Of a stretch of 64,000 bases of DNA, positions 2,828-59,868 are shown one piece after another; the first letter of the stretch is position 1; each line of letters opens with the position of its first letter. Source of the DNA: Bacillota bacterium (lineage in GTDB: Bacteria; Bacteroidota; Bacteroidia; Bacteroidales; Bacteroidaceae); assembly GCA_023664625.1 (NCBI GenBank), contig JAMPFD010000002.1, positions 261,248-325,247 of the forward strand, written 5' to 3'. A program made the position numbers and the translations under genes. Below the pieces are notes generated by a model. That model was not told where the DNA came from and made no database searches. It worked only from the letters and a program-made list of their open reading frames with translations.

Positions 2828-2965
2828 GGAGTTCGTGATAATTGATGAGACCAATTTTCTTATAATCCCAATAGATTTCACAAAAAAGATCTAAAATGTA
2901 TATTCAAAAACGAAGTGCAATAAATCCTTATATATAAGCGGATTTAAGGATTAACTAAATAAAAT

Positions 2966-3004
2966 CGTGGCAATGAGTATTTCGCAAATACACTCATTAC
3001 CACG
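2966..3004. terminator. Hairpin between RHS relic and pepT
   Basis: Arms at 2966-2978 and 2992-3004 are complementary at 12 of 13 positions around a 13-nt loop. It sits between the plus-strand RHS relic and the 3' end of minus-strand pepT, so it may end transcription of either. There is no strong T-run. The rest of 2894-3153 shows no gene. Confidence 0.4.
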
Positions 3005-3153
3005 AATGTTTTTATATAAAAAATGTTTGAATATGTATCTCTACAGGCTTGTGCCAGATGTTTGCTGAATGCAGGTTGGGGTTTTACCATACAGTGGATG
3101 GCTCATCCGCGTCCGTTTACCAGACTTGTTCTTTTTACGGTTACACTGTTTGT

Positions 3154-4380
3154 TCAGTCATTATATTGTGCTGTGATCTCGCAGATTTTTATGATGGTCT
3201 TCATAGCTTTTTCCATCACCTGGCATGATACGAACTCATACGGGCCGTGGAAATTCACTCCGCCGGCAAAGATGTTAGGGCATGGCAGCCCCATGAATGA
3301 GAGTTGTGCACCATCGGTGCCGCCACGAATAGGCTCGACGCGTGGCGGTACGTCGCATTCCTGCATGGCATGGAGTACAATGTCAATGACATGCATCTGA
3401 GGGTCAATCTTTTCCTTCATGTTGTAATACTGGTCCTTGACATCAACGGTGACTGTTCCCTCACCGTATTTGCTATTGAGCTGCTCGCCTATTTTCTTGA
3501 TGAAAGCCTTTCTGTCCTCAAATTTCTGCCTGTCGTGATCGCGTATGATATATGTGAGATTTGCGCACTCAATGCCACCGTCAATATGCAGCAGGTGATA
3601 GAAGCCTTCATATCCCTCGGTCGTCTCCGGCCGTTCATCGGCAGGCATCGTTCCTGCAAATTCCATGGCCACGACGTTTGCGTTGATCATCTTTCCTTTG
3701 GCATATCCCGGATGGACACTGACACCTTTGACTGTTATTTTTGCAGACGCGGCATTGAAGTTCTCGTATTCAAGGTCCCCGAGGTCTCCGCCGTCGATAG
3801 TGTATGCCCAGTCGCAACCGAATTTCTCAACGTCAAAATGGTGGGCACCCATGCCGATTTCCTCGTCAGGATTGAAAGCAACGCGTATCTTTCCGTGCTT
3901 TACTTCCGGATGTTCCTTGAGCCATACCATTGCCTGTATGATTTCCGCAATGCCGGCCTTGTCGTCCGCACCGAGAAGTGTGTGTCCGTCTGTGACGATA
4001 AGGTCTTCGCCCTTATGCTGTAATAGTTCCGGGAATTTCTCCGGGGAGGAAACAATACCTTCGGAAAGGATAATGTCGCCACCGTCATAATTCTCTACTA
4101 TGCGTGCCTTGACGTTTGCACCGGAGCAGTCAGGAGATGTGTCGTAATGTGAGATGAAGCCTATCGTCGGCACATCCTGCCTGATGTTGGAGGGCAGGGT
4201 GGCATAGACATATCCCTTGTCGTCCATTTCCACATCTTCGAGTCCTTCGTTCTCCAGTTCTTCTTTAAGGTAGCGTGCAAAAGCAAGTTGCTTTTCAGGA
4301 GTGCTTGGCACTGTCTGCGAGTCTTCGCATGACTGTGTGTCAAATTTCGTATAGTTAAGAAAGCGTTCTGTCAGATTCAT
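3154..4380 (-). CDS. pepT: Tripeptide aminopeptidase (peptidase T)
   Basis: A cytosolic zinc-dependent peptidase of family M20B that removes the N-terminal residue from tripeptides. The 408-residue length is normal for PepT. Metal-binding and catalytic motifs are all present: HYDTSPD, the LLGADDKAG segment, NPDEEIG with the paired catalytic and metal-binding acidic residues, then the TIDGGDLG and [10 protein letters not shown] segments. The dimerisation domain insert lies in the middle. The ATG start is preceded by an A-rich leader. It is 104 bp downstream of trmD on the same strand, so co-transcription is possible but not shown. Family identity is very clear. Confidence 0.95.
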
Positions 4381-4484
4381 TTCTTTTATATTTTATGTTG
4401 TTAGTGTAAACTTACTGCGGGCTGTGAAAGGTAAAAGGCTGATATGTAATTGTATATGCTTGTAGGTGCAATCTGTCATGTAGG

Positions 4485-5159
4485 CTATTTGAGGAGGTCC
4501 GGCCGCAATGCTTTTGTCCTTGCAATCGCCTGCTCCATTTCCCATTCCTTTATTTTAGCCTCATGTCCTGAAAGCAGAATGTCGGGTACGCGCCACCCCT
4601 TGTACTCAGCCGGTCGGGTATAGATAGGTGCGGAGAGCAGGTCGTCCTGGAAGCAGTCGGAGAATGCGGACTGTTCGTCACCGATGACGCCCGGTATGAG
4701 TCTTACGATAGCGTCAGCCATGACAGCGGCAGGCAGTTCTCCACCTGTCAGGACGAAATCGCCGATACTTATCTCACGTGTGATAAGATGGTCACGCACA
4801 CGTTGGTCAATGCCTTTGTAGTGTCCGGCAAGGATGATGATATTTTCCTTCATTGACAAGTCGTTGGCGACATGCTGGTTGAACTGTTCTCCGTCAGGAG
4901 AGGTGAATATGATTTCATCGTAGTTGCGCTCAGCTTTCAGTGCTGCAATACAGCGGTCAATGGGCTCAATCTGCATCACCATGCCGGCGAATCCGCCGTA
5001 CGGGTAGTCGTCCACGCGTTTCCACTTGTCAAGGGTATAGTCACGAAGGTTGTGGACATGTATCTCCACAAGTCCTTTTTTCTGTGCTCTTGCCAGAATG
5101 CTCTCATTCATGAAAGGCTCGAGCATTTGCGGTAATACTGTTATAATATCTATTCTCAT
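4485..5159 (-). CDS. trmD: tRNA (guanine37-N1)-methyltransferase
   Basis: Methylates G37 of tRNAs with S-adenosylmethionine, which prevents +1 frameshifting. The 224-residue protein has the SPOUT trefoil-knot pattern: [11 protein letters not shown] at the N terminus, [23 protein letters not shown], and the knot segment [13 protein letters not shown]. The start at 5159 is chosen because MRIDI is the conserved N terminus; a TTG at 5177 in the same frame lies within the promoter. A near-perfect minus-strand promoter has its -7 box at 5167-5174, so transcription should start only a few bases before the ATG. The mRNA would then be leaderless or nearly so. The gene diverges from the aldolase gene at 5280. 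Confidence 0.96.
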
Positions 5160-5166
5160 TTCTCTG

Positions 5167-5199
5167 CAAAAGTACAAAAGTTTTTTGAATTAACACAAA
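5167..5199 (-). promoter_or_regulatory. trmD promoter
   Basis: On the minus strand, a TTTG -33 box (5196-5199) and TACTTTTG -7 box (5167-5174) are 21 bp apart, an exact match to the Bacteroidetes primary sigma consensus. The start codon is at 5159, so the 5' untranslated region would be almost absent. Confidence 0.7.
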
Positions 5200-5237
5200 T
5201 TTAGCGTAGATTATGCAATTTTCTTTAAAAAAATTAT

Positions 5238-5245
5238 TAATTTTG
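5238..5245 (+). promoter_or_regulatory. -7 box before the aldolase gene
   Basis: TAATTTTG at 5238-5245 fits the Bacteroidetes -7 consensus and lies 35 bp before the start of the cluster's first gene. No good -33 box is seen at the right distance. I see no cobalamin riboswitch between this box and the start codon. Confidence 0.5.
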
Positions 5246-5279
5246 CAATCAAACTAACAATAACTAACTTATTTGAATT

Positions 5280-6221
5280 ATGATAGATTTGATGAAAACG
5301 CCGCTCAGCGGTATTGTGCCACCCCTTGTGACCCCACTTCTTGACAATGAGACTGTCGACGTAGCGAGTCTCGAGCGTCTTATCGAGCATCTCATAGCCG
5401 GTGGCGTCCACGGTCTTTTCGTACTTGGGACAACAGGTGAGGAACAGTCACTTTCTTTCAATGTGCGCGAGCAGATGATTCGTGAGTCCTGCCGTATCAA
5501 TAACGGCCGTCTTCCAATACTTGTCTGCATCACGGAGACATCTATTGTAGAGGCTGTCAATCTTGCCAACATAGCTAAGGAATGCGGTGCCGACGGTCTT
5601 GTTTCAGCTCCTCCTTATTATTTTGCAACAGGTCAGCCTGAGCTTGCCCAGTTCTATGAGGAGCTTGTTCCGCAACTCCCTCTTCCGGTATTCCTTTATA
5701 ATATGCCTTCTCATGTCAAGGTGAATTTCGCACCGGAGACGGTTGCCCGTCTAGCAAAGATGAAGCAGGTGGTTGGCCTGAAGGACTCTTCCGCCAATGC
5801 CGTGTACTTCCAGAGTGTCATGTATGAGGTTCGTAAGATCAATCCTGACTTCATGATGTTCTGCGGCCCTGAGGAGATAACAGGCGAGTGTGTTCTTATG
5901 GGTGCCAACGGCGGTGTCAACGGCGGTGCCAATATGTTCCCGGAGCTATATGTGGCAATGTACAATGCCGCAAAGGACAGGGACATTGAGAAGCTTATGG
6001 CGATGCAGAAGATTATCATGCAGATAAGCCGTACGATATATACCATAGGCCGTCATGGTTCAAGCTATCTGAAAGGACTGAAATGTGCATGTCAGCAGCT
6101 CGGTGTGATCAATGACGATTTCGTGGCTTCTCCTTTCTACAAGTTCGACACTCCGGAGCGCGACAAGATCACCCTTGCCCTCGCGAAGCTTAATATGGAG
6201 CATGGTAAATTGAAACTGTAA
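5280..6221 (+). CDS. DapA/NanA-family class I aldolase-lyase
   Basis: A 313-residue TIM-barrel enzyme of the dihydrodipicolinate synthase/N-acetylneuraminate lyase superfamily. The Schiff-base lysine is K168 in GLKDSS, the catalytic tyrosine is Y140 in LYNMPSH, and the carboxylate-binding loop is GTTGE at residues 50-54. These enzymes cleave or form 2-keto acids with pyruvate as one partner, so a sugar-acid aldolase is plausible. It heads a plus-strand cluster with an SSS symporter 28 bp downstream and L-fucose isomerase after that, which argues for sugar catabolism rather than lysine synthesis. An alternative start at Met5 (5292) is possible. The exact substrate cannot be read from the sequence; sialic acid, 2-keto-3-deoxy sugar acids or a new one are all open. 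Confidence 0.85.
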   Translation: MIDLMKTPLSGIVPPLVTPLLDNETVDVASLERLIEHLIAGGVHGLFVLGTTGEEQSLSFNVREQMIRESCRINNGRLPILVCITETSIVEAVNLANIAKECGADGLVSAPPYYFATGQPELAQFYEELVPQLPLPVFLYNMPSHVKVNFAPETVARLAKMKQVVGLKDSSANAVYFQSVMYEVRKINPDFMMFCGPEEITGECVLMGANGGVNGGANMFPELYVAMYNAAKDRDIEKLMAMQKIIMQISRTIYTIGRHGSSYLKGLKCACQQLGVINDDFVASPFYKFDTPERDKITLALAKLNMEHGKLKL

Positions 6222-6249
6222 AAGCCCGTACAACCTTAGAATCATTACT

Positions 6250-7776
6250 ATGCACATAATCGACATAATAGTATTCCTTATCTTCACCGGCGGCATCGTC
6301 CTTATGGGCAGCCTGTTCTACAGCAAGGACACCAGTGCCAAGGAATTTACCAATGCAGGAAGGAGCATACCGGGATGGGTCGTGGGAATGAGCATCTTCT
6401 CCACATACGTCTCCAGCATCTCCTATCTCGGTAATCCCGGCAAGGCGTATGCTTCCGACTGGAATCCTTTCGTTTTCGGTCTCAGTATCCCCATCGCATG
6501 TTGGATAGCGGCGAAATGGTTCGTCCCTTTCTACAGGAATCATGACAGTGTGTCAGCGTACGCTTTTCTTGAAGAGCGTTTCGGACCGTGGGCGAGAATA
6601 TATGCTTCCGCATGCTATCTGCTGACGCAGATAGCCCGCATGGGTTCAATACTTTTCCTCCTGGCTATGCCGATGAACATCCTGATGGGGTGGGATCTCC
6701 GCACCGTTATCATCATCACCTCAATAGCAATCATCTTCTATTCCATGCTCGGAGGCATGAAGGCGGTTATATGGACGGAGGCGATACAGGGCTTTATATT
6801 AATAGGTGGAGCGCTTGTGTGCCTCGGCGTATTGATGTTCTCAATGCCGGAAGGCCCGATGCAGGCTTTTCAGATAGGGTGGGACACTCTTGACGAGGCT
6901 GGCAGGAACAAATTCTCCTTAGGCTCGTTTTCGTTCTCCGATGTCGCACATTCCACATTCTGGGTCTGTCTCATCTATGGTGTGTTCATCAATCTCCAGA
7001 ACTATGGCATAGACCAGAACTATGTCCAGCGTTACCATACGGCAAAGACTGACCGTGAGGCGAAGAACGCCGCACTATTCGGCGGCTGGCTGTACATTCC
7101 TGTATCAGCGTTGTTCTTCCTGATAGGCACTTGCCTTTTCAGTTATTATAAGGTGTTCCCAGACGCGCAGATCGCAGCTTTCGACGCGGCAGGAAAGGCT
7201 GACTATGTTTTCCCGTATTTCATGGTTCATTCGCTGCCGACAGGATTGACGGGACTGCTCATTGCCAGTGTGTTCGCAGCCGGTATGTCAACGGTGGCGA
7301 CTTCCGTGACCTCATGCTCCACAATTCTTCTGACGGACTATTGGATGCGCATGCGCAAGCATGTCCACAGGAAAAGCAGTGACCGCAGCCGGGGTATCGG
7401 TGATAAGGAGCATCTCATGGTTCTGAAGCTCGGTTCCGTGCTTATCGGCGTGCTTGGAATCTGTGTGGCGCTTGCACTTGTGAATGTCAACAGTATCCTT
7501 GATGCATGGTGGAAACTTTCATCCATCTTCTCAGGAGGTATGCTCGGACTCTTTCTGCTCGGCTATCTTTCAACGAAGGTCAGGAATATCCACGCTGTCA
7601 TCGGTGTTCTCTGCGGATTCGCCGTCATAGCATGGATTTCGGCATGGAACTGGATAGGCCTTCCTGATCCGGGACTGCACGAATATCTTGCCATTGTGCT
7701 TGGCACGATGACAATCTTCATCGTCGGGTTCGCCCTTGTGCTTCTTGTTCCTGTGAAGAACAGGCAGGAGGCGTAA
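6250..7776 (+). CDS. Sodium:solute symporter (SSS family) 1
   Basis: A 508-residue polytopic inner-membrane transporter with about 13 hydrophobic segments, typical of the SSS/SLC5 family. Diagnostic features are the early NAGRSIPGWVVGMSIFST segment, LGGMKAVIWTEAIQG in the middle, the FINLQNYGIDQNYVQRY stretch, and AAGMSTVATSVTSCSTILL with the Na+-site small and hydroxyl residues. It probably couples sodium entry to uptake of the cluster's carbon source. It lies 28 bp after the aldolase gene and 89 bp before fucI, so it is likely in the same transcript. A second SSS member at 14059 is only distantly similar, which suggests two different substrates or forms. Substrate is inferred only from context. 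Confidence 0.9.
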   Translation: MHIIDIIVFLIFTGGIVLMGSLFYSKDTSAKEFTNAGRSIPGWVVGMSIFSTYVSSISYLGNPGKAYASDWNPFVFGLSIPIACWIAAKWFVPFYRNHDSVSAYAFLEERFGPWARIYASACYLLTQIARMGSILFLLAMPMNILMGWDLRTVIIITSIAIIFYSMLGGMKAVIWTEAIQGFILIGGALVCLGVLMFSMPEGPMQAFQIGWDTLDEAGRNKFSLGSFSFSDVAHSTFWVCLIYGVFINLQNYGIDQNYVQRYHTAKTDREAKNAALFGGWLYIPVSALFFLIGTCLFSYYKVFPDAQIAAFDAAGKADYVFPYFMVHSLPTGLTGLLIASVFAAGMSTVATSVTSCSTILLTDYWMRMRKHVHRKSSDRSRGIGDKEHLMVLKLGSVLIGVLGICVALALVNVNSILDAWWKLSSIFSGGMLGLFLLGYLSTKVRNIHAVIGVLCGFAVIAWISAWNWIGLPDPGLHEYLAIVLGTMTIFIVGFALVLLVPVKNRQEA

Positions 7777-7865
7777 ATATAAAAATGTAGATACAACGGC
7801 TGGCTATCCGCTTGAATGCCGGTCGTTGTCATTAAAAGAAACAGATAACAAAAAACATTACAGTT

Positions 7866-9686
7866 ATGGCTAACTATCCCAAAATAGGAATCCGCCCGAC
7901 AATCGACGGCCGTCAGGGCGGCATCCGTGAGAGTCTTGAAGAAAAGACAATGGCACTTGCCAATGCAGTGGCAAAACTCATCAGTGAAAATCTCAGAAAC
8001 GGGGACGGCTCTCCTGTAGAGTGCGTCATCTCCGATACAACCATCGGCCGTGTCACCGAGGCTGCGGCCTGCCAGGAGAAGTTCGAGCGTGAGAATGTCG
8101 GTTCCACAATTACCGTGACCTCATGCTGGTGCTACGGTTCAGAGACAATGGACATGGATCCGACCCATCCCAAGGCGGTATGGGGCTTTAACGGCACAGA
8201 GCGTCCCGGCGCGGTATATCTTGCGGCTGTCCTTGCTGCACACGCCCAGAAGGGACTTCCGGCATACGGAATCTACGGACATGACGTCCAGGATCTTTCT
8301 GACAATACAATCCCTGCCGACGTAGCAGAGAAGATTCTGCGTTTCGCACGTGCTGCCCAGGCTGTGGCAACAATGCGCGGCAAGTCTTACCTCAGCCTCG
8401 GCAACACCTGCATGGGCATTGCCGGCTCAATCGTCAATGCCGACTTCCTCCAGAATTACCTCGGAATGCGCACGGAATATGTTTCATTGGTTGAGATTCT
8501 CCGCCGTGTGGACTACGGAATCTATGACCATGAGGAGTTTGAGAAAGCCATGGCATGGGTGGAGAAGTTCTGCAAGACCAATGAGGGACATGACTATAAC
8601 GAGGACCGTGCTCTCTTCCCAGGCACGCCGATGACAACGTTCAACGGCAAGGGCAAGGGCAAGAACCGTGAGGAAAAGGATGCCGACTGGGAATTCACGG
8701 TCAAGTGCATGATGATTATCCGTGACCTTATGTGCGGTTCCGACAAACTTAAGGAGATGGGCTACCTTGAGGAGGCTCTCGGCCATAATGCAATCGCTGC
8801 CGGCGTGCAGGGACAGCGTCAGTGGACGGACTACAAGCCGAATTTCGACTTCCCGGAGTCCATGCTTTGCACGAGCTTTGACTGGAACGGTCCGCGTGAG
8901 GCAAAGATTCTTGCTACGGAGAATGATTTCCTCAACGGTCTGTCAATGCTTTTCGGCCATCTCCTTACAAACAAGGGGGCAATGTTCTCCGACATCCGCA
9001 CTTACTGGAGCCCGGAGGCTGTGGAGCGCGTGAGCGGCAAGCGTCCGGAAGGCGGTGCTGCCAACGGTTTCATACATCTCATCAATTCCGGTGCGACAAC
9101 ACTTGACGCTACGGGCGCGATGACTGACGCCGAGGGCAATCCGACAATCAAGTCCCATTGGGATATTACGGAGCAGGATATGGAGAACTGCCTGAATGCC
9201 ACAAGCTGGATGCCGGCTGACCGTGACTACTTCCGTGGCGGCGGCTACTCTTCCCACTTCCTTACAAAGGGCGGCATGCCGATGACCATGCTCCGTGTGA
9301 ACATCGTGGCAGGCCTCGGCCCTGTCCTGCAGCTTGCGGAAGGATGGACGGTAGAGCTTGACAAGGATGTCAACGACATGCTTGACAAGCGTACCGATCC
9401 TACGTGGCCGACAACATGGTTCGCACCGCGCCTCGACCCTTCGAAGGATGCGTTCAAGGACGTTTATTCTGTCATGAACAACTGGGGTGCAAACCATGGT
9501 GCCATCGTCCATGGCCATGTCGGAGCTGACCTTATCACGCTCTGCTCCATGCTCCGCATTCCGGTATGCATGCACAATATTGCTGACAAGGACATCTTCC
9601 GCCCGGCATGCTGGAACGCTTTCGGCATGGACAAGGAAGGCGCGGACTACCGTGCCTGTGCGAACTTCGGCCCGATGTACAGATAA
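7866..9686 (+). CDS. fucI: L-fucose isomerase
   Basis: Interconverts L-fucose and L-fuculose (also D-arabinose and D-ribulose) in the cytosol with a divalent metal. The 606 residues align closely with E. coli FucI from the [12 protein letters not shown] start to the end. The metal and catalytic residues are kept: Glu352 in ATEND, Asp376 in [10 protein letters not shown] and His544 in WGANHG. Long conserved blocks such as [16 protein letters not shown] leave little doubt about family. No fuculose kinase (FucK) or fuculose-phosphate aldolase (FucA) is found in the window, which is unusual, because they normally flank fucI. Here the neighbours are SSS symporters, a DapA-type aldolase and corrinoid methyltransferases. 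A hairpin terminator follows at 9702-9740. Confidence 0.95.
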
Positions 9687-9701
9687 GTCCGTGAGGGCAG
9701 G

Positions 9702-9740
9702 CATCCCTCCGCTCTTCTGAAAGGAACTGCCGGAGGGATG
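9702..9740 (+). terminator. Hairpin after fucI
   Basis: Perfect 10-bp arms (9702-9711 and 9731-9740) 16 bp after the fucI stop. No T-run follows, so it may act as an mRNA-stabilising or weak termination structure that separates fucI from the methyltransferase genes. Confidence 0.45.
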
Positions 9741-9791
9741 GCGATAGGATAGAAATATTTTGTTCACTTACAATACTTGACAAAGTTCTTG

Positions 9792-9839
9792 AAGGTGGGT
9801 TTGGAGATTAGGGAAATGATTTTTCAGACCCACCTTTTT
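9792..9839 (+). terminator. Terminator-like hairpin in the leader of the methyltransferase fusion
   Basis: Arms at 9792-9800 and 9828-9836 pair perfectly (GGTGGGT with ACCCACC) and are followed by a short T-run. Outer pairing of ACAAAG (near 9779) with CTTTGT (near 9845) may extend the stem. It lies 30 bp before the ATG at 9870. A terminator in this position suggests attenuation of the downstream genes, but I recognise no known riboswitch class in the sequence before it. Confidence 0.5.
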
Positions 9840-9869
9840 CGAGGCTTTGTTCAGGACTTTAGAAAAAGA

Positions 9870-12821
9870 ATGAAGACTTGGAAAGAAAATCTTGATGAAA
9901 CCAAGAAAAGATACGTCAACTGGTGGAATCATAAAGGCATCATCGTAAACATGTGGGAGCATTTCCAGGAGGGAGTTGCCCCACATGGTCCGTATTCGGG
10001 CGAACAGCCCATCCATCTTACGGAGGCAGCCCGCAATAATTATGGTACCGGCGCGTTCGGGCTTCCCGGAGCACCGCAGGCGAAGGACGGCAATCAGCGC
10101 TGGTTCGACCCGGAATGGCGCGCAGGGTTCCTGGACTGGTATGTCGGCCATTCCTGCCTGAAGGCTGACATGCTCCCCGTGGCGAACACACAGCTCGGCC
10201 CCGGCTCCCTTGCGTCAATCCTCGGCTCCAGAGTGGAGGGCGGGGAGGACACTATATGGATTCACCCGGACCCGGACTTCAAGGACAAGCTTACGTTCGA
10301 CCCGGACAATGAGCAGCTGCGCATTCATAAGGAACTGCTGAAAGCCTGCAAGCGCAAGGCCAACGGCAACTACTATGTCGGAATGCCTGACCTCATGGAG
10401 GGACTTGATGTCCTTGCCGCGCTGAAAGGTACGGACAAGGTCTTGCTGGACACTGTCATGCAGCCGGAAGTCGTGGAGGAACAGCTGCAGTTCATCAATG
10501 ATGTGTATTTCAAGGTCTTTGACGAACTCTACGACATAATCCGCGAGGGCGACGAGATGGCATTCTGCTATTTCTCTTCCTGGGCTCCGGGCAAGATGAC
10601 GAAGATACAGAGCGACATCTCCACGATGATTTCCGATGACGATTACCGCCGCTTCGTCCAGCCGTACCTGCGCGAGCAGTGTCAGAGGATTCCGTATACG
10701 CTATACCATCTTGACGGTGTGGGAGCCATGCACCATCTTCCGGCCCTCCTCGAGATAGAGGAGCTCAACGCCATTCAGTGGACGCCGGGTGTGGGCGAGC
10801 CGCAGGGCGGCGATCCTAAATGGTATGACCTTTACCGGAAGATTATTGCCGGAGGCAAGAGCATCATGGCCTGCTGGGTCACTCTTGACCAGCTCCGTCC
10901 GCTGCTTGACAATGTCGGCGGTGACGGCATACATCTCGAGATGGATTTCCACAACGAGGATGAAGTGGAGCAGGCACTGCGTATCGTGGAGGAATACCGG
11001 ACCAGCGAGGTGGAGCGCAAAGTCGACGAATGCCTGCATATCGGCGACATGACCACTTTCGAGGCAAAGAGGCCTGCGACACGTTTCCGCCCTCTCCGTA
11101 TCGGCGGCAGACAGGTTGTCATGCCGTGTGGAGAAACTTCCGGCACACCTGTTGCCGTAAGCAAGCCGGCGCTTGCGGAGATGATGGAGAGCCGCATGCT
11201 TGTCTTCGACGGTGCGATGGGCACTTCCATACAGGAATGCGGTTTGGGCAATGTGAGGAGCAATGAATATCTTTGCGTTGAGCAGCCTGAGATTATTTCT
11301 GAAATATACCGCAAGTTCCTGCTTGCAGGCTCTGATGTCATCACTGCAAACACTTTCAATGCGCAGAGCGTCTCCCTGAAAGCCTGCGGCTTGGAGGACA
11401 AGGCTGTGGAGATAAACACTGCCGCCGTGACTCTCGCCCGCAGCCTGGCTGATGCGTTCACCGTTGCCAACCCCGGGAAGCCGCGCTATGTGCTCGGCGG
11501 CATGGGACCGACACGCGAGACGCTTTCAATGCCTGACACGGCAAAGATAACGAAGCAGGAACTTTACGACTCATACAAGGAACAGGCCGCCGCACTCATC
11601 GGTGCGGGTGCCGACGGCATACTCTTTGAGACGGTCTTCGACCTCGTCAATCTTGAGATTGGCATTGATGCGGCGGAGAAAGCCATGGAGGAACTGGATG
11701 CCAGGGTGCCGATACTTGTCAGTGCGACATTCTCGACAGCCGACGGCAGCAACATGGTGGGGCAGAACGTCATCGAGTTCTTCCGCACGCTGAAGGACGA
11801 CAATGTCCTCGCCGTCGGAGTGAACTGCAATCCTGACATAAAACTTACCACGGATGTCATCGCGAAGATTGCCGCTGTCACACCTTATTATATTATAGCA
11901 TTCCCGAATGCCGGATTCCCGGATTCGAAAGGCCGGTTCCCTACAACGCCGCAGGAGTTCGGGCAGAAGATGTGGAAAATGATTGACGCCCATCTCGTGA
12001 ACCTTGTCGGCGGATGTTGCGGCACCACTCATGAGCATATCCGCAAGATTGCCGAGCTTGTCAGTCCTGCCGAAGGCTGTTTCGTGAGCGGCCATGTTCC
12101 AGGCGTTCTGCCGGCACAGGCAGCCGCACCGTCGGAAGACAAGGTAGTGGAGATTCCTGCACAGGTGGCACCTGCAGCCTCCGCACCGTCGGAGCTCGGT
12201 CTGAAGGACTCCATCATCGCCGGCAAGGAAGCTGCTGCCGTTGAGGCAACGAAGAAGGCGGTGGAAGAAGGTGCCAATCCTGCTGAACTGATTAACACTC
12301 AGATGATAGAAGCCATGTCCGTCGTCGGCCGGCGGTTCTCCGAGGGCAAGGCGTTTGTGCCGAACCTCCTCATGGCAGGACGCGCAATGAAAGCCGCGCT
12401 CGCAATCCTGAAGCCAATCATGGAGGCGAGCGGCGAGGGCATACAGTCCGCGGGAAAGATTGTCATCGGCACCGTAAAGGGCGACCTTCACGACATAGGC
12501 AAGAACCTTGTGGCATCAATGCTCGAAGGCTCGGGCTTTGAGGTGATAAATGTCGGCATAGACGTTGACGCAGACACTTTTGTCAAGGCTGTCGTCGAGA
12601 ATGACGCAGACATTCTCTGTCTCTCCGCACTGCTCACGACGACGATGACCTACATGTCCGACTGTCTCTCCGCCCTCGAAGCCGCAGGCATCCGCAGCAA
12701 GGTGAAGGTCATGGTCGGCGGCGCGCCGGTGACGGAGGAGTTCGCACGCGAGATAGGTGCCGACGGCTACAGTTCCAACGCCAACGAAGCTGTGGCTCTT
12801 GCCAAGCGTCTTATGGCATGA
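9870..12821 (+). CDS. Fusion: UroD-like methyltransferase, homocysteine methyltransferase, corrinoid carrier
   Basis: A 983-residue protein with three parts of a corrinoid methyl-transfer system. Residues 1-425 are UroD-like, of the type with an N-terminal RYVNWWNHKG motif, and carry YHLDG with His280 and Asp282 where MtaA-type enzymes have HxC. Residues 435-745 are a MetH/BHMT-type homocysteine methyltransferase: FDGAMGTS at 446, zinc ligand Cys653 in NCNPD, and Cys716 and Cys717 in GGCCGTT. After an Ala/Pro-rich linker (about 750-790) comes a helical cap, then a B12-binding domain with DLHDIG, where His874 is the expected cobalt ligand. The folate-binding and reactivation domains of MetH are absent. 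The likely reaction is methyl transfer from an unknown donor to corrinoid and then to homocysteine, giving methionine. The start at 9870 lies after a terminator-like hairpin; upstream in-frame starts would include that hairpin. Confidence 0.9.
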   Translation: MKTWKENLDETKKRYVNWWNHKGIIVNMWEHFQEGVAPHGPYSGEQPIHLTEAARNNYGTGAFGLPGAPQAKDGNQRWFDPEWRAGFLDWYVGHSCLKADMLPVANTQLGPGSLASILGSRVEGGEDTIWIHPDPDFKDKLTFDPDNEQLRIHKELLKACKRKANGNYYVGMPDLMEGLDVLAALKGTDKVLLDTVMQPEVVEEQLQFINDVYFKVFDELYDIIREGDEMAFCYFSSWAPGKMTKIQSDISTMISDDDYRRFVQPYLREQCQRIPYTLYHLDGVGAMHHLPALLEIEELNAIQWTPGVGEPQGGDPKWYDLYRKIIAGGKSIMACWVTLDQLRPLLDNVGGDGIHLEMDFHNEDEVEQALRIVEEYRTSEVERKVDECLHIGDMTTFEAKRPATRFRPLRIGGRQVVMPCGETSGTPVAVSKPALAEMMESRMLVFDGAMGTSIQECGLGNVRSNEYLCVEQPEIISEIYRKFLLAGSDVITANTFNAQSVSLKACGLEDKAVEINTAAVTLARSLADAFTVANPGKPRYVLGGMGPTRETLSMPDTAKITKQELYDSYKEQAAALIGAGADGILFETVFDLVNLEIGIDAAEKAMEELDARVPILVSATFSTADGSNMVGQNVIEFFRTLKDDNVLAVGVNCNPDIKLTTDVIAKIAAVTPYYIIAFPNAGFPDSKGRFPTTPQEFGQKMWKMIDAHLVNLVGGCCGTTHEHIRKIAELVSPAEGCFVSGHVPGVLPAQAAAPSEDKVVEIPAQVAPAASAPSELGLKDSIIAGKEAAAVEATKKAVEEGANPAELINTQMIEAMSVVGRRFSEGKAFVPNLLMAGRAMKAALAILKPIMEASGEGIQSAGKIVIGTVKGDLHDIGKNLVASMLEGSGFEVINVGIDVDADTFVKAVVENDADILCLSALLTTTMTYMSDCLSALEAAGIRSKVKVMVGGAPVTEEFAREIGADGYSSNANEAVALAKRLMA

Positions 12822-12855: not shown

Positions 12856-13863
12856 ATGATTGATATGATAAAATGGCGGCAGGAGATCATCGCGCGTCCT
12901 GACCGCGTCGCAATGCCGGTGATGACACATCCCGGCATAGAGGAACTCGGATATACGGTGAAGCAGGCTGTCCTTGACGGAGAAATCCACGCCAAGGCAG
13001 TGGCATACCTCGCCGGCCGCTATGCCACCCACGCCGCCTCGGTAATCATGGACCTCACCGTCGAGGCGGAGGCGTTCGGCGCGGAGGTGATATTCCCTGA
13101 GGACGAGATACCGTCCGTCACGGGCCACATGCTCAGCAGCGTGGAGGACATCCGCCGCCTCGAAGTCCCTTCGCTCAGCACCGCCCGCATCCCGGAGTAC
13201 ATCAAGGCGAACGTCATCGCCCACCGCGAAATCTCCGACCGACCGGTCTTCGCCGGCTGCATCGGCCCGTTCTCCCTCGCCGGCCGTCTTTACGACATGT
13301 CCGAGATAATGATGCTCATCTACAGCGACCCAGAGGCGGCGCACGAGCTGCTGGAGAAATGCACGCTGTTCATCCTCAAATATGCCGCCGCACTGAAGGC
13401 GACGGGCGTGGAGGGAGTGCTCATGGCGGAGCCTGCCGCAGGACTGATGTCCAACGACGACTGCAAGACATTCTCTTCCAATTATGTCAAGCGCATCATT
13501 GACAGGCTGCAGGACGAGCATTTCATGATAGTCCTCCACAACTGCGGCAACACGGGCCAGTGTACGGAGGCAATGGTCATGACCGGTGCCCACGGCCTGC
13601 ATCTCGGCAACAAGTGCGACCTTGCACAGGTGGCGCGCGAGACTCCGGAGGACATCCTCGTAATGGGAAACCTTGATCCCGTCTCGGCATTCAAGATGTC
13701 CTCGCCGGAGGAGATGTACCGCCAGACGACGGAGCTGCTGGAGAGCACGCGCGAGTTCCCGCACGTAGTGCTTTCGTCAGGATGCGACACGCCGCCACAC
13801 ACGCCCCTCGCCAACGTTGACCGGTTCTTCAAAGCTCTGGAAGACTATAATGCAAGGCTATAG
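12856..13863 (+). CDS. MtaA/UroD-family corrinoid methyltransferase
   Basis: A 335-residue TIM-barrel protein of the MtaA/CmuA/uroporphyrinogen decarboxylase family. The zinc-site pattern of MtaA is present: His228 and Cys230 in LHNCGN, and Cys310 in SSGCDTPP, so it probably activates a thiol or binds a methyl donor through zinc. It is not a haem-pathway UroD, because the UroD arginine-rich start is absent and zinc ligands are present. The start at 12856 is 34 bp after the fusion gene, which makes translational coupling likely; MIDMIKW offers a second ATG at 12865. Together with the fusion it gives two UroD-fold methyltransferases with different active-site motifs in one operon. It could be a second donor-specific enzyme or move methyl groups to another acceptor. 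Confidence 0.88.
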   Translation: MIDMIKWRQEIIARPDRVAMPVMTHPGIEELGYTVKQAVLDGEIHAKAVAYLAGRYATHAASVIMDLTVEAEAFGAEVIFPEDEIPSVTGHMLSSVEDIRRLEVPSLSTARIPEYIKANVIAHREISDRPVFAGCIGPFSLAGRLYDMSEIMMLIYSDPEAAHELLEKCTLFILKYAAALKATGVEGVLMAEPAAGLMSNDDCKTFSSNYVKRIIDRLQDEHFMIVLHNCGNTGQCTEAMVMTGAHGLHLGNKCDLAQVARETPEDILVMGNLDPVSAFKMSSPEEMYRQTTELLESTREFPHVVLSSGCDTPPHTPLANVDRFFKALEDYNARL

Positions 13864-22439: not shown

Positions 22440-22513
22440 AGCCTCTTGTCGGATTCGAACCAACGACCCCGAGATTACAAATCACGTGCTCTGGCCAACT
22501 GAGCTAAAGAGGC
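22440..22513 (-). tRNA. tRNA-Thr (anticodon TGT)
   Basis: A full cloverleaf can be drawn on the minus strand. The acceptor arm GCCTCTT/AAGAGGC is perfect, the D stem is GCTC/GAGC, the anticodon loop is TTTGTAA with TGT at 34-36, and the T arm is GTTGG-TTCGAAT-CCGAC. The anticodon stem has one T-T mismatch. CCA is not encoded. It is downstream of the SRP RNA on the same strand and probably processed from the same transcript. Confidence 0.93.
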
Positions 22514-22516
22514 AGG

Positions 22517-22615
22517 TGGACGAGCTACTCACATCGCACCGCTACAACCAAGTACCCTTGCTGCGATCAAGCCCTGGGGGAGTTCCGAGGGAGCTGGTCG
22601 TATGAGACTCGCCCG
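22517..22615 (-). ncRNA. ffs: Signal recognition particle RNA (4.5S type)
   Basis: A roughly 99-nt RNA that folds as one long hairpin. Its ends pair (GGGCGAG near 22614 with CTCGTCC near 22518). The apical part reads CCCCCAGG, a 10-nt tip, then AGCAAGGG, which corresponds to the CAGG/AGCA internal loop where Ffh binds SRP RNA. A -7 box TATCTTTG at 22671-22678 on the same strand would start transcription near 22665, with a 5' leader that must be removed. The tRNA-Thr follows within a few bases. Identity rests on motif and fold; a covariance-model search would settle the exact ends. Confidence 0.75.
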
Positions 22616-22670
22616 TGTGGAAATGACTTGCCATGACGGCTTGCCAAATATTGCTTTCGCAAAAGCGATG

Positions 22671-59630: not shown

Positions 59631-59868
59631 TAAAAAAGGGCCATACTGTGATTGTGATGAAAACTCCTTGATATAGGTAGAGTGCCTTATACCTTTGTAA
59701 TCCACCGGCTCTTAATACGGCTTGGAACAGGACAGAGGTGAGGTTTGAAGGACAAGTCTCGGCAGTGACCCCGCGATAACCGGCTCCGTTGTGGCCCGCC
59801 ATTGAGTATACGCGTTCTCAGTTTTCTTAATTTATTTGATGAGTTCCCCGATCTAACCAGTATGACCC
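59631..59868 (-). ncRNA. Candidate 6S-like regulatory RNA
   Basis: A minus-strand transcription unit of about 238 nt without an open frame. The promoter is near-perfect (TTTG at 59901-59904, 19 bp, TAATTTTG at 59874-59881). The RNA would start GGGTCATACTG (59868 downwards) and end CAGTATGGCCC followed by a T-run (59632-59637). The two ends pair over 11 bp with one wobble. A closed terminal helix, a long irregular middle and T-run termination fit 6S RNA, and the Bacteroidetes class (6S-Flavo) is my best guess. It lies divergent from aspS. Class identity is not proven. Confidence 0.55.

What the first reader, a model, noticed from the sequence alone, without database searches (positions are those of the whole stretch)
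9870..12821. One polypeptide joins a donor methyltransferase, a homocysteine methyltransferase and their corrinoid carrier
In known corrinoid methyl-transfer systems the donor enzyme (MT1), carrier protein and acceptor enzyme (MT2) are usually separate, and MetH combines homocysteine, folate and B12 domains. Here a UroD-like domain replaces the folate domain and sits N-terminal to a zinc homocysteine methyltransferase (Cys653, Cys716, Cys717) and a B12 domain with DLHDIG (His874). The protein should move a methyl group from a small donor to homocysteine without folate. The MetH reactivation domain is missing, so another way to rescue oxidised cobalt is needed. This is the strongest candidate for an undescribed system in the window.
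Basis: partly seen in the sequence, partly recalled or inferred. Interest (0 to 1): 0.85.

Follow-up and report, generated by a model that had tools for sequence, protein, structure and literature searches.

The report
B12-driven sugar demethylase feeding methionine synthesis
A gut Bacteroidales protein joins three enzyme parts that probably strip a methyl group from an unusual methylated plant sugar (best guess 2-O-methyl-xylose of pectin) with vitamin B12 and hand it to homocysteine to make methionine, which would give methionine without folate and may explain how the hardest part of pectin is finished off.

Summary
Window 9870-12821 encodes one 983-residue protein: an unassigned N-domain, a zinc homocysteine methyltransferase (HMT) and a B12 carrier, with no folate or activation domain in cis. 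Two Palleniella isolate genomes carry the same fusion (94% identity in the N-domain), so it is no chimera.

The N-domain is a very divergent UroD-superfamily domain (profile-profile 91%; Pfam below cut-off; no PDB hit). Bacteroides/Phocaeicola relatives have N-B12 without HMT; more distant Bacteroidales have N as a separate gene.

In most relatives with enough flanking DNA, N lies near GH141, GH31 (alpha-xylosidase type) and an SGLT-type sugar symporter, often with an MtaA-like protein and a small MetH-activation-like protein. The GH141 homologue BT1002 releases 2-O-methyl-xylose-alpha-1,3-fucose from rhamnogalacturonan II. In the genus the GH31 orthologue is in 9 of 9 fusion genomes and 1 of 27 others. 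No MetH, MetE or MTHFR was found in the window's genome.

Best reading: a corrinoid O-demethylase of a methylated plant sugar, most likely 2-O-methyl-D-xylose, with homocysteine as acceptor. Substrate and activity are inferred. My paper searches found no description.

The parts
9870..11009 (+). N-domain: predicted sugar O-methyl:corrinoid methyltransferase (MT1), divergent UroD superfamily
   Evidence: No Pfam/NCBIfam match above cut-off; UroD by profile-profile, 91% against eight controls <1%; 81-97% identity to five fused relatives, 82% to Phocaeicola vulgatus
10707..10718 (+). HLDG motif (His280, Asp282) of the N-domain, at the place where the MtaA-like neighbour has HNCG
   Evidence: 89 of 89 N-domains have YHLDG; 48 of 48 MtaA-like have H-x-C; that the two motifs correspond is my reading
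11199..12062 (+). Homocysteine S-methyltransferase domain (MT2) with Cys653, Cys716, Cys717
   Evidence: PF02574 E 9.7e-75; both Cys motifs in 72 of 72 fusions over 900 residues
12201..12413 (+). B12-binding_2 (cap) domain of the carrier
   Evidence: PF02607 E 5.9e-19
12453..12794 (+). B12-binding domain with DLHDIG (His874)
   Evidence: PF02310 E 7.4e-28; D-x-H-x-x-G in 84 of 85
12856..13863 (+). Stand-alone MtaA-like zinc-type UroD methyltransferase just downstream; role open (second acceptor enzyme or part of reactivation)
   Evidence: PF01208 E 1.8e-61; best PDB match methylcobalamin:CoM methyltransferase 4ay7; only PF01208 match in this genome
14059..15666 (+). SGLT-type sodium:sugar symporter of the conserved cassette (SSS1)
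   Evidence: PF00474; same cluster as relatives' SSS1; the P. vulgatus copy matches SGLT1 best, E 1e-67
7866..9686 (+). L-fucose isomerase, upstream gene; would use the fucose half of the disaccharide
   Evidence: TIGR01089 1074 bits over cut-off 850; near N in 10 of 80 named loci
6250..7776 (+). Second sodium:solute symporter (SSS2), travels with FucI
   Evidence: PF00474; synteny
5280..6221 (+). DHDPS-family aldolase, travels with FucI and SSS2
   Evidence: PF00701 E 4.8e-61; synteny

Best explanation
The protein is a self-contained corrinoid methyl-transfer machine for a methylated plant sugar. Proposed path: periplasmic GH141 releases 2-O-methyl-D-xylose-alpha-1,3-L-fucose from side chain A of rhamnogalacturonan II; the SGLT-type symporter imports it; cytoplasmic GH31 splits it; fucose isomerase uses the fucose; the N-domain moves the O-methyl group of 2-O-methyl-xylose to Co(I) of the C-terminal B12 domain; the zinc HMT domain moves it to homocysteine, giving free xylose and methionine. 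When the cobalt is oxidised, the stand-alone activation-like protein (R-x3-G-Y plus four cysteines) restores it. Shown by sequence: domain anatomy, cassette, co-occurrence, no match to folate-dependent methionine synthesis in this genome. Inferred: the methyl-sugar substrate, the places and order of the steps, the direction of transfer, reactivation. In relatives without HMT the MtaA-like protein or a separate HMT would be the acceptor enzyme.
For: Cassette: GH31 lies near N in 51 and GH141 in 47 of 80 named loci; with at least 7.5 kb on both sides 29 and 26 of 39; in the 12 N-B12 loci both are there in 12 of 12 (same counts with identity limits). Same-strand gene runs with separate genes: G099 has GH141, GH2, a lone HMT, activation-like gene, GH31, N, Gfo/Idh, symporter; G254 has symporter, Gfo/Idh, N, GH31, corrinoid protein, GH141, activation-like gene. 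Within the genus the close GH31 orthologue (68-81% identity to the P. vulgatus one) is in 9 of 9 fusion genomes and 1 of 27 others (Fisher p 1e-7), in 5 of the 9 on another draft contig than N. GH141 of P. vulgatus is homologous to BT_1002 (E 5e-178), and both catalytic Asp are kept in 49 of 49 aligned GH141, both G000 copies included; BT1002 releases 2-O-Me-Xyl-Fuc (PMC10154630, passages). GH31 is nearest to 5f7c and then YicI and to the NCBIfam alpha-xylosidase model, 493 bits, below its cut-off 606. The symporter is SGLT-type. No MetH, MetE or MTHFR match in G000 and G004; LuxS present as a homocysteine source. Activation-like protein in 9 of 9 fusion genomes plus G041 and G054, in 0 of 8 same-genus genomes without fusion.
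Against: No activity data and no structure (prediction switched off). The N-domain has no characterised relative. In the window genome GH31 and GH141 are on contigs C27 and C30, not beside the fusion. 18 of 68 HMT-type loci (5 of 31 with at least 7.5 kb on both sides) show none of GH31, GH141, FucI or SSS1 nearby. G041 has N but no GH31 hit at E<=1e-100 and only sub-cut-off GH141 hits. G031 keeps GH141-GH31-symporter without N. The lone HMT of G099 is of another lineage than the fused HMTs, and no corrinoid gene was seen in its 18 kb. GH141 is a multifunctional family (a xylanase and endo-fucanases are known), so its product here is inferred. LuxS is in 22 of 23 genomes tested and does not discriminate. 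Five other genomes of the genus (G010, G012, G016, G026, G029) have no MTHFR match and neither fusion nor full MetH, so G000 may live on imported methionine. The MtaA-like partner is unexplained.
Confidence: 0.62

Rival explanations
1. Same machine, but the methyl donor is another RG-II methyl sugar, above all 2-O-methyl-L-fucose of chain B.
For: Fucose isomerase is next door in the window and near N in 10 of 80 named loci; RG-II also carries 2-O-Me-fucose, released by GH139 (PMC12282258, passages).
Against: The conserved glycosidases are GH141 and an alpha-xylosidase-type GH31, which fit the MeXyl-Fuc disaccharide; GH139 was not searched for as a family. Fucose from the same disaccharide explains FucI.
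Confidence: 0.17
2. The donor is methanol from pectin methyl esters or a methylamine, as in classical MtaB or MttB systems; B. theta BT_0340/0342/0343 are listed as 'Mta' methylamine proteins in print.
For: The label in PMC8941943 (passage); the carrier domain scores against methylamine/betaine corrinoid models, all below their cut-offs.
Against: The N-domain matches no methanol or amine methyltransferase family in Pfam or NCBIfam; a sugar symporter and two glycosidases are hard to explain for methanol.
Confidence: 0.08
3. The N-domain is not a methyl-donor enzyme but another acceptor or sensor domain, and the methyl comes from the MtaA-like neighbour (for example from a methyl thioether).
For: The MtaA-like protein has the H-x-C...C zinc pattern of thiol methyltransferases (pattern meaning recalled); Mlp proteins are proposed to act on methyl-sulfur or selenium compounds (PMC10418091, abstract and part 1 of Results).
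Against: N is the most conserved part of the protein, is present without any HMT and sits in the sugar cassette; in G009 and G027 no MtaA-like gene was seen in the 19 kb around N and the activation-like gene.
Confidence: 0.1
4. A degenerate or moonlighting MetH that uses free methylcobalamin or a folate enzyme in trans.
For: HMT and B12 domains resemble MetH parts (TIGR02082 408 bits).
Against: No MTHFR or MetH match in G000 and G004; the N-domain is highly conserved and linked to sugar genes.
Confidence: 0.03

Closest known systems
UroD-superfamily aryl O-demethylases and relatives (MtvB, OdmB, VdmB, MtoB, CdmB)
   Same: Same superfamily by profile-profile, paired with a corrinoid carrier and an acceptor enzyme; MT1-type O-demethylation is the chemistry of the aryl enzymes (PMC13222342 passages; PMC8630106 passages).
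   Different: Sequence too distant for any PDB hit; linked to sugar glycosidases; fused with HMT and carrier; homocysteine, not folate/H4MPT, as predicted acceptor; activation-like protein co-occurs (no family search for the ATP-dependent activase was made).
MetH (cobalamin-dependent methionine synthase)
   Same: Zinc HMT domain and B12 domains; fusion HMTs sit next to MetH HMTs in a quick tree.
   Different: No folate-binding domain, no activation domain in cis, TIGR02082 408 bits under the cut-off 1010.85.
CmuA (fused MT1 + corrinoid, chloromethane)
   Same: UroD-type donor domain fused to its corrinoid domain, as in the N-B12 form of Bacteroides (CmuA as MTI and CP: PMC13222342 passage).
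   Different: Here an acceptor enzyme stands between the two; sugar context instead of haloalkane.
Type 1 mlp gene clusters (MtaA-like proteins)
   Same: MtaA-like proteins and a corrinoid carrier without folate methyltransferase (PMC10418091).
   Different: The N-domain lacks the H-x-C site; one MtaA-like protein instead of several; sugar cassette; activation-like protein instead of (or besides) Ram/RACE.
B. thetaiotaomicron BT_0338-BT_0343
   Same: BT_0338 is called GH141 (PMC8264420), BT_0339 alpha-xylosidase (PMC10434189), BT_0340/0342/0343 'Mta' corrinoid proteins (PMC8941943): these labels fit the order of the P. vulgatus cassette.
   Different: Probably the same system in the N-B12 form; I did not fetch that genome, and I saw only labels and expression lists for it in print.

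Membership tests
MetH | Homocysteine S-methyltransferase domain with zinc cysteines | tested here: met
   PF02574 E 9.7e-75; GxNC and GGCC
MetH | Methyl-THF binding (Pterin_bind) domain | tested here: not met
   No match at E<=10
MetH | C-terminal SAM-dependent activation domain in the same chain | tested here: not met
   No Met_synt_B12 match in the chain; protein ends after the B12 domain
MetH | Passes the curated equivalog model | tested here: not met
   TIGR02082 408 bits, cut-off 1010.85
UroD-superfamily corrinoid O-demethylase (MT1) | UroD fold | tested here: inconclusive
   Profile-profile 91% over 336 columns, eight controls <1%; Pfam 12 bits below cut-off; narrow MtaA-like set 0.3%; no structure
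UroD-superfamily corrinoid O-demethylase (MT1) | Cognate corrinoid carrier | tested here: met
   Fused carrier here; separate corrinoid gene near N in G054 and in G254
UroD-superfamily corrinoid O-demethylase (MT1) | Methyl transfer from an O-methyl ether to Co(I) | not testable with these tools
   Needs anaerobic enzymology
UroD-superfamily corrinoid O-demethylase (MT1) | ATP-dependent corrinoid activase partner | not tested
   No family search for the activase was made; a Met_synt_B12-like protein co-occurs
SCMT/MtaA-like (Mlp) thiol methyltransferases, for the N-domain | H-x-C ... C zinc site (recalled as defining) | tested here: not met
   YHLDG in 89 of 89 N-domains; the pattern is in the neighbour 12856-13863
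RG-II side-chain A utilisation system | BT1002-type GH141 and alpha-xylosidase-type GH31 in the same genome | tested here: met
   G000 has GH31 on C27 and GH141 on C27 and C30, catalytic Asp kept in both GH141; enzyme specificity not tested
Met_synt_B12 activation domain (stand-alone protein) | Passes Pfam gathering score and keeps the R-x3-G-Y SAM signature (signature recalled) | tested here: met
   G000 protein 47.7 bits, cut-off 25; R-x3-G-Y-C-x-W and C-x2-C-x4-C in 45 of 45 of the cluster; of two further copies, L155 has both and L156 only the second

The most novel reading that the evidence does not exclude
An anaerobic, corrinoid-dependent sugar O-demethylase: the first B12 route that breaks an aliphatic sugar methyl ether, completing rhamnogalacturonan II catabolism (2-O-methyl-xylose to xylose) and, through a built-in homocysteine methyltransferase, turning a plant cell-wall methyl group directly into methionine without folate. 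In two species it would be the only possible methionine synthase. Its cobalt would be rescued by a new type of activation protein that joins a MetH-like SAM site to a four-cysteine, possibly iron-sulfur, site.
Probability: 0.5. Interest if true: 0.93.

Novelty: new variant of a known kind. Interest (0 to 1): 0.85.

Why it matters
B. theta is reported to break all but one glycosidic linkage of rhamnogalacturonan II (PMC12282258, passage); my recall, not checked, is that the missing one is the 2-O-methyl-xylose-fucose bond. This cassette offers both a candidate for the missing glycosidase (GH31, whose close orthologue 5f7c already has a crystal structure) and an answer to what happens to the methyl group. 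My searches of the paper library found no oxygen-free ether demethylation of sugars. It would link dietary pectin, vitamin B12 and methionine supply in gut bacteria (Prevotella, Bacteroides, Phocaeicola) and correct the 'methylamine methyltransferase' label seen for these genes. It also shows a three-way fusion of MT1, MT2 and carrier, useful for structural work on how one carrier visits two active sites.

Tried and rejected
Assembly chimera: rejected, same fusion in isolate and independent genomes. Methylamine/methanol donor: no family match for the N-domain. Cobalamin or SAM riboswitch near the gene: the Rfam gathering scan of the window and of four loci found none (3 matches in all, elsewhere in the window). 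Repeated independent HMT insertions: HMT is far more variable than N, but in a quick tree the 77 fusion HMTs form one side of a branch (support 77, neither shown nor rejected). HMT remnant in the linker of L111: none found. First profile comparison of N with a narrow MtaA-like set failed (0.3%); the broader set gave 91%. A plasmid search with the N-domain gave one distant 24% hit in Subdoligranulum, an unannotated record, not followed further. Papers: searches for sugar demethylation with corrinoids and for the triple fusion found no description; the 2017 RG-II study is not held, so description outside this library is possible.

Rows dropped: the matches at 40-42% identity (E 1e-121 to 1e-134) were set aside as a GH31 paralogue; the 9/9 versus 1/27 count uses matches of 68-81% identity among the 36 genomes G000-G035, several incomplete and related to each other. 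ORF-based searches missed genes hidden by longer antisense ORFs; (tblastn) replace those counts. A motif count of GH141 by pattern (30 with both motifs, 12 with the first only, 1 with none, 9 short) was too strict; the alignment shows both Asp in 49 of 49 (sequences of 450 residues or more).
Full report
WHAT IS THERE. The frame 9777-12821 (+) is real; relatives begin at the place of the ATG at 9870. Pfam gives S-methyl_trans, B12-binding_2 and B12-binding and nothing for folate, MTHFR or activation. The first ~380 residues match no Pfam or NCBIfam family above cut-off (URO-D 12.2 bits against 23.9), and the separate or distant members scanned match none either. No PDB chain matches, even with a 26-sequence profile (the two listed there are chance-level). 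A profile of 30 N-domain sequences against 36 UroD proteins (24 from other genomes, 12 MtaA-like neighbours) gives 91% over 336 columns (78% in global mode), and each of eight unrelated control families stays under 1%. An earlier test with 13 close MtaA-like proteins gave 0.3%. I take UroD-superfamily membership as likely, not proven. The motif YHLDG is in 89 of 89 N-domains; the MtaA-like neighbour has H-x-C in 48 of 48, with a further invariant Cys in the 13 aligned.

WHO HAS IT. A scan of one genome for each of 84,980 species found 313 related stretches and returned the best 80: Palleniella, Prevotella, Marseilla, Bacteroides, Phocaeicola and unnamed Bacteroidales, mostly gut or rumen by their titles. 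By tblastn all 80 hold N; 68 have HMT and 12 do not. The 12 are the N-B12 form of about 600 residues (one, L111, 715), including Phocaeicola vulgatus ATCC 8482 and Bacteroides faecis. Among 393 genomes of the order drawn evenly, 13 have a match at E<=1e-20, three of them distant (about 1e-44). Among 395 genomes of the phylum 2 have one, this genome included. In G054, G041, G099, G254, G143 and G419 the N-domain is a gene of its own of 354-355 residues.

THE CASSETTE. The recurrent neighbours are GH141, GH31, a sodium:sugar symporter, an MtaA-like protein and a small activation-like protein. Counts by tblastn over the 80 loci: GH31 51, GH141 47, symporter 51, MtaA-like 48, activation-like 39, FucI 10; contig ends cut many loci (unchanged with identity limits). 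With at least 7.5 kb on both sides: 29 of 39 GH31, 26 of 39 GH141, 33 of 39 symporter. In the 12 loci without HMT, GH31 and GH141 are there every time. 18 of 68 HMT loci, 5 of 31 with long flanks, have none of GH31, GH141, FucI or symporter near. Two same-strand gene runs with separate genes act as a Rosetta stone: G099 has GH141, a GH2, a lone HMT, the activation-like gene, GH31, N, a Gfo/Idh oxidoreductase and the symporter; G254 has the symporter, Gfo/Idh, N, GH31, a lone corrinoid protein (75% identical to the fused carrier of a Bacteroides), GH141 and the activation-like gene. Against a simple story: the lone HMT of G099 belongs to another HMT lineage than the fused ones, and no corrinoid gene was seen in its 18 kb.

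CO-OCCURRENCE. Among the 36 same-genus genomes the close GH31 orthologue (68-81% identity to that of P. vulgatus) is in 9 of 9 with the fusion and 1 of 27 without (Fisher p 1e-7; relatedness not corrected). In five of the nine (G000, G009, G027, G032, G033) it lies on another draft contig than the fusion, so this is probably not mere linkage. In the window genome GH31 and a GH141 are on contig 27 and a second GH141 on contig 30 beside a GH127-like and a rhamnosidase-like gene (names from matches to genes scanned). The exception G031 carries GH141-GH31-symporter without the N, activation-like and MtaA-like genes that stand between them and the upstream cluster in relatives. G041 is the opposite exception (N without a GH31 hit).

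WHAT THE CASSETTE DOES. GH141 of P. vulgatus matches BT_1002 at E 5e-178, and the two catalytic aspartates of BT1002 are kept in 49 of 49 aligned GH141, both G000 copies included. BT1002 releases 2-O-methyl-D-xylose-alpha-1,3-L-fucose from RG-II chain A (PMC10154630, passages; see also PMC12786026, passages). The family is multifunctional, so the product here is inferred. GH31 is nearest to 5f7c and then to YicI (that 5f7c is BT_0339 is recall), and its best NCBIfam model is alpha-xylosidase, below cut-off. Most of the complete GH141 copies shown start with signal-like sequences and the GH31 copies do not (by eye). The symporter matches SGLT1 at 1e-67, far ahead of iodide or choline carriers. 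FucI next to the fusion in the window would take the fucose. So a 2-O-methyl-xylose unit should arrive in the cytoplasm, and the conserved unexplained enzyme of the cassette is tied to a corrinoid carrier. The simplest reading is that N demethylates it.

WHERE THE METHYL GOES. The window genome has one S-methyl_trans match, this protein, and no MetE or MTHFR match; G004 likewise has only the fusion and neither of the two. The seven other fusion genomes have both MetH and MTHFR. LuxS is present in G000, but it is in 22 of 23 genomes tested. Thus in two species the fusion is the only candidate methionine synthase found. Five other genomes of the genus have no MTHFR match, no fusion and no full MetH (G016 only a 75-residue HMT fragment; G012 has a MetE-like match), so methionine uptake is also possible. 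In Bacteroides and Phocaeicola the MtaA-like protein or an enzyme elsewhere must serve as acceptor.

REACTIVATION. A stand-alone protein (open frames of 216-277 codons) with a partial Met_synt_B12 match is in 9 of 9 fusion genomes of the genus, in G041 and G054, and in 0 of 8 same-genus genomes without fusion that were tested. In G000 it is on C32 beside HemN-like and EF-G-like genes that flank N in other species. It keeps R-x3-G-Y and adds Cys in GYC-x-W and C-x2-C-x4-C in 45 of 45 (the divergent L156 copy lacks the first pattern), which suggests a metal or iron-sulfur site (inference). It differs from the full-length separate activation domain that goes with MetH in several genomes of this genus.

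EVOLUTION. Between the window and five fused relatives N is 81-97% identical, HMT 40-79%, carrier 65-92%: the donor domain is the core, HMT the loose part. A quick tree is compatible with one origin of the fused HMT near MetH HMTs (support 77).

LITERATURE. UroD-type corrinoid O-demethylases for aromatics are known (PMC13222342 and PMC8630106, passages). BT_0340/0342/0343 are labelled methylamine/trimethylamine corrinoid proteins (PMC8941943, passage); BT_0338 is called GH141 and rose with BT_1002 and BT_0984 in a co-culture (PMC8264420, passage). My searches found no description of corrinoid sugar demethylation or of this fusion; the founding RG-II paper is not held.

VERDICT. Observation confirmed; interpretation improved. 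Known kind of machinery, new architecture and probably a new substrate class.

Noticed in passing
L196 (G031) 2901-12746: GH141-GH31-symporter stand directly after the upstream cluster while the N, activation-like and MtaA-like genes found there in relatives are missing: a natural empty site.
   Followed up: partly
L152, L153, L154, L151: Distant N-domain relatives (about 25% identity) lie beside RhaT-like permeases (by eye) and melibiase- or GH95-like enzymes, with no corrinoid gene among the genes identified: perhaps a wider family of sugar-acting UroD-like enzymes.
   Followed up: partly
L155 9630-10676, L156 7613-8674: A Gfo/Idh/MocA oxidoreductase sits next to the separate N gene in both gene runs; role unknown.
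   Followed up: no
same-genus genomes G003, G009, G024, G028, G032, G035: No activation domain was matched in the MetH frame; a separate full-length one (open frames of 268-323 codons) is encoded elsewhere.
   Followed up: partly
L102, L115, L098, L114: Near the fusion in several Prevotella: aldo/keto reductase, zinc dehydrogenase and an amidohydrolase with weak L-fuconolactonase similarity, suggesting oxidative fucose use.
   Followed up: no
L111: MAG labelled Paenibacillus carries a Bacteroidales-like cassette with both the FucI and the GH31/GH141 sets, so probably mislabelled; its N-B12 has a linker of about 140 residues that does not match HMT.
   Followed up: partly
window 22440-22621 and 59633-59867: tRNA and Bacteroidales small SRP RNA; Bacteroidales-1 (6S-like) RNA, all on the minus strand.
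   Followed up: no
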